This document shows, in pieces, positions 22,175-31,210 of a DNA stretch of 36,145 nucleotides (its first letter is position 1; each line of letters starts with the position of its first letter). A program made the translations under genes and the position numbers. Below the pieces are notes generated by a model that saw nothing but the letters and a program-made list of their open reading frames with translations, was not told the DNA's origin and made no database searches. The DNA lies in contig SVTA01000010.1 in the NCBI GenBank assembly GCA_015064005.1, positions 1 to 36,145 of the forward strand. Direction: 5' to 3'. This stretch comes from Oscillospiraceae bacterium (GTDB lineage Bacteria > Bacillota > Clostridia > Oscillospirales > CAG-272).

Positions 22175-22218
22175 CCTGAAAATAAAGATGTGCAGACATA
22201 TAAAAATTGCGCGCATGC

Positions 22219-22345
22219 CTGCTCCGTCCTTTTGCCTGAGAGATTCGGCGGCTCGCGCCACCTTGCACCTTCGGCACTCTTGCGAGATTCTCCGGAGCTT
22301 CCTCCGCACCCGGTCTCCCTCATGGATTCCGGATACTTCACTGGG
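22219..22345 (-). ncRNA. glycine riboswitch, apparently one full aptamer with an upstream partial (ghost-like) hairpin
   Basis: Minus strand contains GCUCCGGAGAAUCUCGC...GUGCCGAAGGUGCAAG...CCGAAUCUCUCAGGCAAAAGGACGGAGC; P1 GCUCCG/CGGAGC. Confidence 0.92.
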
Positions 22346-28446: not shown

Positions 28447-29205
28447 TCAAACCGCCTCCAGCTCTCGTTCGGCAGCCTCAATATCGGCGTCAAGGTTCAT
28501 TCTACCCAGCTCGTTGCACCGATCCAGCAGCCGCTTGGCGATCTCCTCTCTTGTGGCACCGTCCCGTATCAGCTCCGAGTAACGGACAGGGGCATCCACC
28601 ACGTACTGCAGCTCCTTCTTTTTGAAGTAGGTCACGTAGATCGGCACGTCCATGCCCTTCTTGTAGCAGACCTCCGCCAGCACCACAAAGCCGAGGAAGA
28701 AGCCCTCCAGCTCCGGCAGGTAGCCGTTTTCGGCCTTTTCCGGGAATACCACCACATTTTCACCCTGCCGCAGCGCCTCAAGACTCTCGCGAATGGTGCG
28801 CTTGAAGCGGGCATCCTTGTAGGTGGAAATGAGGTTGAGGCCCTTATAAAACATATTGGTGAGGGGGCTGGCGATCAGGCAGAAGGTGCGGGCCAGATGA
28901 ATGTTCCAGTGCTTGCGCTTGTGGAAATAGATCTCCGATTGGTACTTGTACATCGGTACAAGACCGGAGTTCATTTCGTGCGCACCCCACATCCGCAGGG
29001 GCTGATCGCAATACAGCTCCAGCGACAGCGGCGCGTCGGTGCCCTCGTGATTGCTGACAATGATGGAGCCTTCACCAAAGCCCTCTCCCAGATAAACGAA
29101 CACCGGGCGCTTATATCTGCCCACCATCAGCTTTTTCAGCATCTTGAACCACAGCTTGCGGTTTTTCTGGCCTCCGGCATTGCCTTTACCAAAATCAATT
29201 GTCAT
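28447..29205 (-). CDS. lysophospholipid acyltransferase (PlsC-like) family protein
   Basis: VSNHEGTDAPL (NHxxxD), VVVFPEKAENGY. Confidence 0.75.
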   Translation of the reverse strand: MTIDFGKGNAGGQKNRKLWFKMLKKLMVGRYKRPVFVYLGEGFGEGSIIVSNHEGTDAPLSLELYCDQPLRMWGAHEMNSGLVPMYKYQSEIYFHKRKHWNIHLARTFCLIASPLTNMFYKGLNLISTYKDARFKRTIRESLEALRQGENVVVFPEKAENGYLPELEGFFLGFVVLAEVCYKKGMDVPIYVTYFKKKELQYVVDAPVRYSELIRDGATREEIAKRLLDRCNELGRMNLDADIEAAERELEAV

Positions 29206-29480: not shown

Positions 29481-29515
29481 AATGGATTGATTTGCTCATA
29501 GATCTGTGGTATAAT
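29481..29515 (+). promoter_or_regulatory. sigma-A-like promoter leading into hairpin unit 1
   Basis: TTGATT-N17-TATAAT; the -10 is the first 6 bp of the repeated unit. Confidence 0.5.
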
Positions 29516-29586
29516 AAACCCAGCAATGCGCCGCACCCGCTATTCGCGGGCCCCTCGGCGCGATCTAAAGAAGGGTTTATTGATCA
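29510..29586. repeat. 77-bp nested hairpin unit, copy 1
   Basis: Identical to 29655..29731; stems AATAAACCC/GGGTTTATT, GCGCCG/CGGCGC, CCCGC/GCGGG. Confidence 0.95.
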
Positions 29587-29655
29587 TAATTCTACCGATT
29601 TTATGTTGACGGTGCGGCCCTTTGCCTTCCGTCAACGGGCGGTAAGAATTATGAT
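29583..29655. repeat. inverted repeat/hairpin linking the two 77-bp units
   Basis: ATCATAATTCT-ACCG ... CGGTAAGAATTATGAT outer arms; GTTGACGG ... CCGTCAAC inner arms. Confidence 0.85.
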
Positions 29656-29731
29656 ATAATAAACCCAGCAATGCGCCGCACCCGCTATTCGCGGGCCCCT
29701 CGGCGCGATCTAAAGAAGGGTTTATTGATCA
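29655..29731. repeat. 77-bp nested hairpin unit, copy 2
   Basis: Exact copy of 29510..29586 (offset 145). Confidence 0.95.
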
Positions 29732-29776
29732 CAATTTCTTTTATTTTATGTTGTTTTCCCGCCTGTTTGTATGGAA

Positions 29777-31210
29777 TTAACCATCGCTTCTTTTGCCCAG
29801 CTTTTTTCGCATAGATTCATCGCCCTCCACGGGGGGTGCGAAGGGATCCTTCAGATCCCAGAAAACGTATTTGCCCCGATCAAGCAGAGCAATACCGCCC
29901 GGATGCGCCTCCACGCACTCCTCGAAGGTGGTCTTTTTCAGCTCCATTTCGCCGGAACGCACCACCTCGATTGCCTCCATATCGTCGGTGCCGATGAGCA
30001 GAATGGGCTTTTCGTACCCCTCAAAGGTGCAATCCTCAAATAGCAGCTTTTCCACGTTACCCACCGCAAGCAGCGGCACGTGCCCCATCCCCTCGCGGCT
30101 GGCAAAGGTGACGTTTTTGAAGCGACAGATGACCTTATCCTCCGCATCGCCCCAGAGCATACCCGTATAGTACAGATCGCCCATATAGCAATTCTCAAAG
30201 GTGATCTCCTTCAAGGCTCTCTGACGGCACCAGCGGTTGAGGCCCGTAAATTCCAGGCGCACGGTCTCTCTCACCTGCTCAAAGCGGCAATTCCGGATGA
30301 CGATGTTTTCAGGGGATCTGCGCACGTCGGCGCGGAAATCGCAGTAATAGGAAAAGACCGCGCGGCACTCGTGGCGGCCGTCCACGTTGGTGGCGGTTCC
30401 CTTGATCTTATCCTCCAGCGGCATCACGCCGCGGGGGCCGAAATTGCGCTCGTCGGAGACGCAGTTTTCCACCAGGAAATTATTGCCACCAACGCGCAAA
30501 GGCATACAGGCCGAATTCAGCTTGCAGTTCCGCACGATGACGTCGTGATTATCAAAGCCCGCAACAGCATCGTCGCCCGCGTTAATGTCGCAGCCCTCGA
30601 TGAGCACGTCGTCGCAGGTGCGGATGTCGATGCCGTCCTCACCACCGTGAATGGTCACGTTCCGGATGGTGACATGCTGACTTTGGAAAATGGCGTGGCA
30701 CCAGTTGCCGCTGTTGATGAAGGTGTAGCCCTCAAAATGCATATTTCGGCATCTCCACACGCCGATGCCGTGAGGGCCGCGGTAATGGTGCTCTCCCTCG
30801 GGATCGTACGCGTTGGCGCCGTCAATGTAGGAGCCTTTTTCGCCAATGATGGAAAAATCGTGGGCGTCCAGAGCGCGGATCAGCGCATTGGACCAGCGGC
30901 TGGTGGCAACCGAGCTGCGGCCGGTTTTCGGGGTATCCCCGACCTCCTCGATGGTGACGGGCTCCAGCGTATCCTCCAGGTAGCCAAAATAGTCCTCGGC
31001 ATCGCGGCTGCCCTTGAGAATGGCGCCGGTTTCCAGATACAGCTGCACCCCCGAGCGGATGCGGAGGCCGCCCGTCAGATAAATGCCGCAGGGAATGACC
31101 ACGCGGCCGCCCCCCGCGAGAAAGCACGCGTCAATGGCCTTTTGAATGGCAGCGGTCTGCAGCTGATCGCAAATTCTGGCGCCGTAATCGCGAATGTTGA
31201 AGATTTTCAT
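29777..31210 (-). CDS. glycoside hydrolase family 28 (polygalacturonase-like)
   Basis: IRDYGARICDQLQTAAIQKAIDACFLAGGGRVVIPCGIYLTG; HYRGPHGIGVWRC; NAGDDAVAGFDNHDVIVRNC. Confidence 0.85.
   Translation of the reverse strand: MKIFNIRDYGARICDQLQTAAIQKAIDACFLAGGGRVVIPCGIYLTGGLRIRSGVQLYLETGAILKGSRDAEDYFGYLEDTLEPVTIEEVGDTPKTGRSSVATSRWSNALIRALDAHDFSIIGEKGSYIDGANAYDPEGEHHYRGPHGIGVWRCRNMHFEGYTFINSGNWCHAIFQSQHVTIRNVTIHGGEDGIDIRTCDDVLIEGCDINAGDDAVAGFDNHDVIVRNCKLNSACMPLRVGGNNFLVENCVSDERNFGPRGVMPLEDKIKGTATNVDGRHECRAVFSYYCDFRADVRRSPENIVIRNCRFEQVRETVRLEFTGLNRWCRQRALKEITFENCYMGDLYYTGMLWGDAEDKVICRFKNVTFASREGMGHVPLLAVGNVEKLLFEDCTFEGYEKPILLIGTDDMEAIEVVRSGEMELKKTTFEECVEAHPGGIALLDRGKYVFWDLKDPFAPPVEGDESMRKKLGKRSDG

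What the first reader, a model, noticed from the sequence alone, without database searches (positions are those of the whole stretch)
29510..29731. Hairpin cassette: two identical 77-bp nested-stem units bridged by a third palindrome
29510..29586 and 29655..29731 are identical over 77 bp. Each can fold as AATAAACCC/GGGTTTATT enclosing GCGCCG/CGGCGC enclosing CCCGC-tattc-GCGGG, with asymmetric unpaired strands (AGCAAT / GATCTAAAGAA). The linker is itself a two-tier inverted repeat. No ORF explains this, and it matches no riboswitch or ribozyme motif I recognise. Options are a structured RNA, a non-autonomous palindromic element, or a strong transcription barrier downstream of the GH28 gene.
Basis: partly seen in the sequence, partly recalled or inferred. 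Interest (0 to 1): 0.7.

Follow-up and report, generated by a model that had tools for sequence, protein, structure and literature searches.

The report
Mobile hairpin element that invades promoters
The repeated hairpins are two copies of a small, gene-free mobile DNA element that, in a range of related bacteria, jumps precisely into the TATAAT (-10) box of gene promoters and rebuilds that box at both of its ends, so it can land in front of essential genes; no such family was found in the literature or databases searched.

Summary
The repeat is real: two identical 77-bp copies, each the left part of a ~145-bp unit. The unit belongs to a multi-copy mobile family present in 5 of 21 sampled species of the genus, several other genera of the family, and two other families of the class. 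Each unit runs from one TGnTATAATA to the next and holds an internal inverted near-copy ("I") of the joined ends ("J"); I differs from J consistently at the centre of the -10 box.

Mobility is shown at five promoters occupied in one species and uninterrupted in relatives. The element sits at the -10 box: a -35-like hexamer lies 17 nt upstream in unrelated flank (26 sites: mean 3.9/6 matches, at most 2.2 at any other spacing). At one site relatives have TATACT; the occupied copy reads TATAAT on the left and TATACT on the right, placing the exchange before the fifth base of the box. Some members form head-to-tail arrays. Downstream genes include homoserine dehydrogenase, prolyl-tRNA synthetase, RelA/SpoT and tRNA-Thr.

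No Rfam family, terminal inverted repeats, encoded protein, autonomous copy or consistent Y1 transposase was found. Best reading: a non-autonomous promoter-targeting element moved in trans by an unidentified recombinase acting on folded ends.

The parts
29487..29492 (+). -35 hexamer TTGATT of the host promoter, in the flank and not part of the element
29507..29516 (+). Left junction: extended -10 box TGGTATAATA, shared by the host promoter and the element's left end
29510..29654 (+). Unit 1 of the element, complete (145 bp, hairpin A + hairpin B)
29513..29581 (+). Hairpin A: outer stem AATAAACCC (29513-29521) with GGGTTTATT (29573-29581), and nested inner stems
   Evidence: covariation
29573..29592 (+). 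I site of unit 1 (GGGTTTATTGATCATAATTC): inverted near-copy of J with TATAAT replaced by TCAAT; pairs with both element ends
29583..29654 (+).
29646..29666 (+). J site (GAATTATGATATAATAAACCC): head-to-tail junction of units 1 and 2, containing an extended -10 box
29655..29769 (+). Unit 2: hairpin A identical over 77 bp, hairpin B of a different subtype and truncated; its right end is missing
   Evidence: (100.7 bits against 173.7 for unit 1)
29718..29736 (+). I site of unit 2

Best explanation
This is a small non-autonomous mobile DNA element, here as one complete and one truncated unit in tandem. It inserts, in fixed orientation, exactly into the extended -10 box (TGnTATAATA) of host promoters. 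Shown by sequence: (1) many copies at unrelated sites; (2) uninterrupted orthologous promoters in sister species; (3) exchange inside TATAAT, with the target's left half kept on the left and its right half on the right, so that a -10 box stands at both ends; (4) an internal site I complementary to both ends, mismatched mainly around the exchange point; (5) head-to-tail arrays in which neighbouring units share one TGnTATAATA. Inferred: the ends are brought together by pairing with I, in single-stranded or extruded DNA, or possibly with an RNA copy of I; a recombinase acting in trans, not identified here, then exchanges strands in the unpaired TAT. Because the left -10 box is rebuilt next to the native -35, the host promoter probably keeps firing through the element, and the right-end extended -10 box may add a second start, which would explain insertions in front of essential genes. 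My split: mobile and inserted at -10 boxes about 0.95; exchange through folded J:I pairing about 0.6; enzyme class open.
For: Copies: four places in the window's genome by DNA search and five by covariance model, plus four other species of the genus; 11 of 297 family genomes in 8 genera; two other families of the class. Empty sites: junction-spanning matches for G014:C125 (homoserine dehydrogenase; empty in the window's own genome at 84% identity and in most sampled relatives), G016:C58, the G017 tRNA-Thr promoter and G000:C131; and G001:C17, where all nine relatives fetched have an uninterrupted promoter at the expected place, eight of them with TATACT, while the occupied copy has TATAAT left and TATACT right. 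Promoter targeting: 26 sites, mean -35 match 3.88 of 6 at spacer 17, 18 of 26 with at least 4 matches, at most 2.19 at every other spacing. J/I rule: in 25 units from several genera the arm AATAAA and beyond matches almost fully and I reads CAAT where J reads TAAT. Covariation: one outer-stem pair is GC, CG, AU or UA in different copies; 0 of 500 shuffles reach the score. Tandem arrays with shared junctions. Housekeeping targets.
Against: No enzyme and no autonomous copy were found. Y1 transposase is absent from several genomes with copies. Whether the pairing acts in DNA or RNA cannot be told; strand preference is slight. The exchange point is fixed only to between the third base of TGn and the fifth base of the box. 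No empty ortholog of the window's own site was found. The -10 restriction might partly reflect that TGnTATAATA occurs mostly in promoters, or survival of harmless insertions. All genomes are draft assemblies.
Confidence: 0.75

Rival explanations
1. A family of small structured RNA genes, each with its own -35/-10 promoter, duplicated around the genome; the hairpins are the functional RNA.
For: Conserved structure with covariation; first units are preceded by a promoter and units in arrays each carry an extended -10 box.
Against: Empty orthologous sites are complete promoters of the downstream gene, and the -35 lies in non-homologous flanks. Covarying bases include positions just after the -10 box that a transcript from that promoter should lack (inference from standard start-site spacing). 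No terminator-like site on the + strand at the window locus. Presence is patchy among sister species.
Confidence: 0.1
2. An IS200/IS605-like single-strand transposon derivative (palindrome-associated element) moved by a Y1 HUH transposase, with I as guide and TGnTATA as target.
For: Two similar hairpins in direct orientation, no terminal inverted repeats, fixed orientation, and an internal sequence complementary to the cleavage region, like the guides of IS200/IS605 (PMC8266576). The right side of the target is not required (TATACTG target).
Against: No Y1 gene found in G000 (80% complete), G287, G279, G264 or G206, which carry copies. Known guides are tetranucleotides 5' of the palindromes, whereas here nearly the whole end pairs with I. 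The Y1 genes seen in the genus are either IS200-type or REP-associated-like genes with their own GTAG repeats.
Confidence: 0.25
3. An integron-cassette-like element: J:I is a folded attC-like site recombined by a tyrosine recombinase into promoter sites that play the part of attI.
For: J and I form a long imperfect hairpin with an unpaired centre at the exchange point; head-to-tail arrays; a circular form would restore the hairpin.
Against: No ORF cargo, no attC consensus by eye; integrases were not searched. Targets are scattered promoters, not one attI.
Confidence: 0.25
4. An RNA-guided recombination system (comparable in logic to IS110 bridge RNAs) in which the transcript carrying I pairs with target and donor DNA.
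For: The element lies just downstream of a host promoter and should be transcribed; I lies in the transcribed part and complements both the -10 target and the element's ends; covariation fits RNA-DNA pairing as well as DNA-DNA pairing.
Against: No transposase gene in the element and none tested in trans; no evidence for the RNA.
Confidence: 0.1

Closest known systems
IS200/IS605 family derivatives (palindrome-associated transposable elements)
   Same: Hairpins near both ends, no terminal inverted repeats, oriented insertion next to a short target, end recognition by internal complementary sequence
   Different: Target is an extended -10 box, one internal site pairs with both ends along most of their length, -10 boxes are rebuilt at both ends, tandem arrays; Y1 transposase not found in several carriers
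REP elements with TnpA-REP (RAYT)
   Same: Short non-autonomous hairpin repeats in intergenic DNA, presumably moved in trans
   Different: No 5' GTAG-foot REP structure; the genus has REP-associated-like genes with their own GTAG repeats, separate from this family; REPs are not tied to -10 boxes
MITEs
   Same: Small, gene-free, multi-copy, moved in trans
   Different: No terminal inverted repeats; asymmetric ends; exchange within the target box instead of a clear flanking duplication
Integron gene cassettes (attC)
   Same: Folded imperfect hairpin with unpaired centre, head-to-tail arrays
   Different: No ORF, no integron platform seen, targets are many host promoters
IS elements that carry promoter hexamers in their ends (for example ISCth4, PMC7780238)
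   Same: Promoter hexamers embedded in element ends
   Different: ISCth4 carries its own transposase, has terminal inverted repeats and is flanked by 8-bp duplications; here the host -10 box itself is the target

Membership tests
MITE | Terminal inverted repeats | tested here: not met
   Left end TATAATAAANNC and right end ..AATTATGRTATAATA are not inverted copies of each other
MITE | Target site duplication | tested here: inconclusive
   TATA(ATA) stands at both ends, but at G001:C17 the two ends differ at the fifth base of the box, so any duplication is at most its first bases
IS200/IS605-derived element | Y1 transposase available in the host | tested here: not met
   PF01797 absent from G000, G287, G279, G264 and G206; draft genomes, so not final
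IS200/IS605-derived element | Sub-terminal hairpins, no terminal inverted repeats, oriented insertion | tested here: met
REP element | GTAG tetranucleotide 5' of a short palindrome | tested here: not met
   GTAG/GAAG lies 3' of the inner hairpins and varies
Integron cassette | attC site, ORF cargo and intI platform | tested here: inconclusive
   J:I folds attC-like but there is no cargo ORF; intI was not searched
Rfam RNA family | Match above gathering score | tested here: not met
Plasmid- or phage-borne element | Copies in plasmid, phage or viral collections | tested here: not met

The most novel reading that the evidence does not exclude
A new class of promoter-parasitic mobile element, spread across at least three families of one bacterial class: ends and target are recognised by pairing with a single internal splint sequence, strand exchange happens inside the -10 box (possibly in DNA opened by RNA polymerase), and insertion rebuilds a -10 box on both sides so that even essential promoters tolerate it; it would be moved by a recombinase not yet connected with such elements.
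Probability: 0.4. Interest if true: 0.9.

Novelty: new variant of a known kind. Interest (0 to 1): 0.78.

Why it matters
An element that takes the -10 box itself as target and restores it would be an unusually host-friendly way to multiply in dense bacterial genomes, and would plant structured 5' leaders and extra promoters in front of housekeeping genes. The J/I rule gives a simple, testable code for its target, and a recombinase that reads it could become a tool for inserting DNA at promoters. It also warns that such hairpins upstream of genes in these bacteria may be mobile repeats and not regulatory RNAs.

Tried and rejected
Terminator or transcription barrier: no + strand terminator-like site and essential genes downstream. 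Known RNA family: none. A right-end pattern search for autonomous copies mostly returned ordinary extended -10 promoters and was uninformative. A model of hairpin B found no B-only element with cargo (its predicted structure was poor, so it worked mainly on sequence); G089:C29 is a copy without hairpin A. Y1 transposase as resident enzyme: patchy; the divergent Y1 genes of the genus look REP-associated with their own repeats. Viral contigs, plasmids and phages: nothing. Paper searches gave no description of such an element. Wobble counts favour the promoter-sense strand (43 G-T against 5 A-C cells), but the structure was predicted on that strand and folding energies hardly differ, so I draw no conclusion on the strand.

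Full report
OBSERVATION. The two 77-bp copies at 29510-29586 and 29655-29731 are identical and belong to a direct repeat with 145-nt spacing. The region folds strongly on either strand, matches no Rfam family and lies between two minus-strand genes: one of unknown family at 28447-29205 and a right-handed beta-helix / GH28-like protein at 29777-31210, whose 3' end faces the element.

A MULTI-COPY FAMILY. Searching the window's own genome gave further copies on other contigs, and sister species carry copies at unrelated places. A covariance model found copies in 5 of 21 genomes of the genus, 11 of 297 of the family in 8 genera and, in 396 genomes of the order, only in that family. A broader model of the left half found it in two more families of the class, including one genome with 10 copies. 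Several of these form head-to-tail arrays with periods of 86 to about 150 bp in which neighbouring units share one TGnTATAATA.

IT INSERTS AT -10 BOXES. First units start with the -10 box of a promoter whose -35 lies in the flank. Over 26 sites the match to TTGACA at spacer 17 averages 3.88 of 6, 18 of 26 have at least 4 matches, and no other spacer from 8 to 31 exceeds 2.19. A few of the 26 may be related by descent, so this is a description and not a strict test.

EMPTY SITES. I joined the left and right flanks of nine occupied sites and searched the genus. Matches across the junction were found for the homoserine dehydrogenase promoter (element in G014:C125; absent from the window's own genome at C109 and from most other species), the G016:C58 promoter, the G017 tRNA-Thr promoter and the G000:C131 promoter. 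The empty versions are intact promoters: -35, about 17 nt, TGnTATAATA, gene. At a fifth site (G001:C17) the nine relatives fetched have uninterrupted promoters at the expected place, eight with TATACT as -10 box; the occupied copy has TATAAT on the left and TATACTG on the right. The target's left part therefore stays left and its right part stays right, and the exchange lies before the fifth base of the box. The third base of TGn varies with the flank at left ends but follows the element family at right ends, so the exchange lies after it.

ANATOMY. Call J the sequence formed when the right end meets the left end (GAATTATGA-TATAAT-AAACCC here, and physically present at 29646-29666 between the two units). 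Each unit holds inside it an inverted near-copy, I (29573-29592). In 25 units from several genera and three families the flanking arms of J and I agree closely, and the constant difference is at the centre: where J reads TATAAT, I reads T(T)CAAT or a close variant. I can therefore pair with both ends at once and leave the exchange point unpaired. The pairing is under selection: the variable bases of the left end covary with I, one pair occurring as GC, CG, AU and UA, and none of 500 shuffles reaches the observed score; the complete structure behaves likewise. By the usual spacing of transcription starts these left-end bases should not be in a transcript from the same promoter, so the pairing is either within DNA or between an RNA copy of I and DNA. 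That is inference.

CONSEQUENCES FOR THE HOST. The downstream genes include homoserine dehydrogenase, glycerol-3-phosphate acyltransferase, prolyl-tRNA synthetase-like, a SpoU methylase, RelA/SpoT, a DHH phosphoesterase, a LysR regulator and a tRNA-Thr. The native -35/-10 pair is kept at the left end and another extended -10 box stands at the right end, with no + strand terminator-like site between them at the window locus. I infer that transcription continues.

WHAT MOVES IT. No unit encodes a protein, and no copy with cargo was found. Y1 transposases are present in some carriers and absent from others. Tyrosine and serine recombinases and IS110-type enzymes were not tested. The enzyme is unknown.

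THE WINDOW'S OWN SITE. The closest relative, G014, has the same left flank, the same promoter and hairpin A followed by the second B subtype, whereas the window has A + B + A + truncated B. A unit was gained in one lineage or lost in the other, or the contig end in G014 hides a collapsed copy; this cannot be decided. No empty ortholog of this site was found.

VERDICT. Its precise choice and reconstruction of -10 boxes, together with the single internal splint, set it apart from the MITE and REP families tested here; in its manner of working it resembles single-strand systems (IS200/IS605, integron attC), but membership in either is not shown.

Noticed in passing
window 22214-22305, minus strand: Glycine riboswitch aptamer, 60.2 bits.
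   Followed up: no
L137, L138, L139, L140, L141, L146, L147: Divergent Y1 (REP-associated-type) genes of this genus, several of them next to a der-like GTPase gene; GTAG-plus-palindrome repeats lie around them and appear to encode inserted peptides such as AIHESP or EGLAPP within the proteins.
   Followed up: partly
L002 about 1300-1480 (left of the element in G000:C131): Another repeat family (GATGATATAC... stem-loops) that matches many places in most genomes of the genus (query 2403-2547).
   Followed up: no
L004 1491-1565 (G000:C105) and L165 (G089:C29): Remnants with most of hairpin B and the right end but without hairpin A; in L004 they lie between a -35/-10 promoter and a sodium:neurotransmitter symporter gene.
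   Followed up: partly
L198 and L192 (G670): Units of only ~86 bp without GC-rich hairpins, made of two half-repeats with ATTGTTGTTTTCAAGGWAG, perhaps the minimal form of the element.
   Followed up: partly
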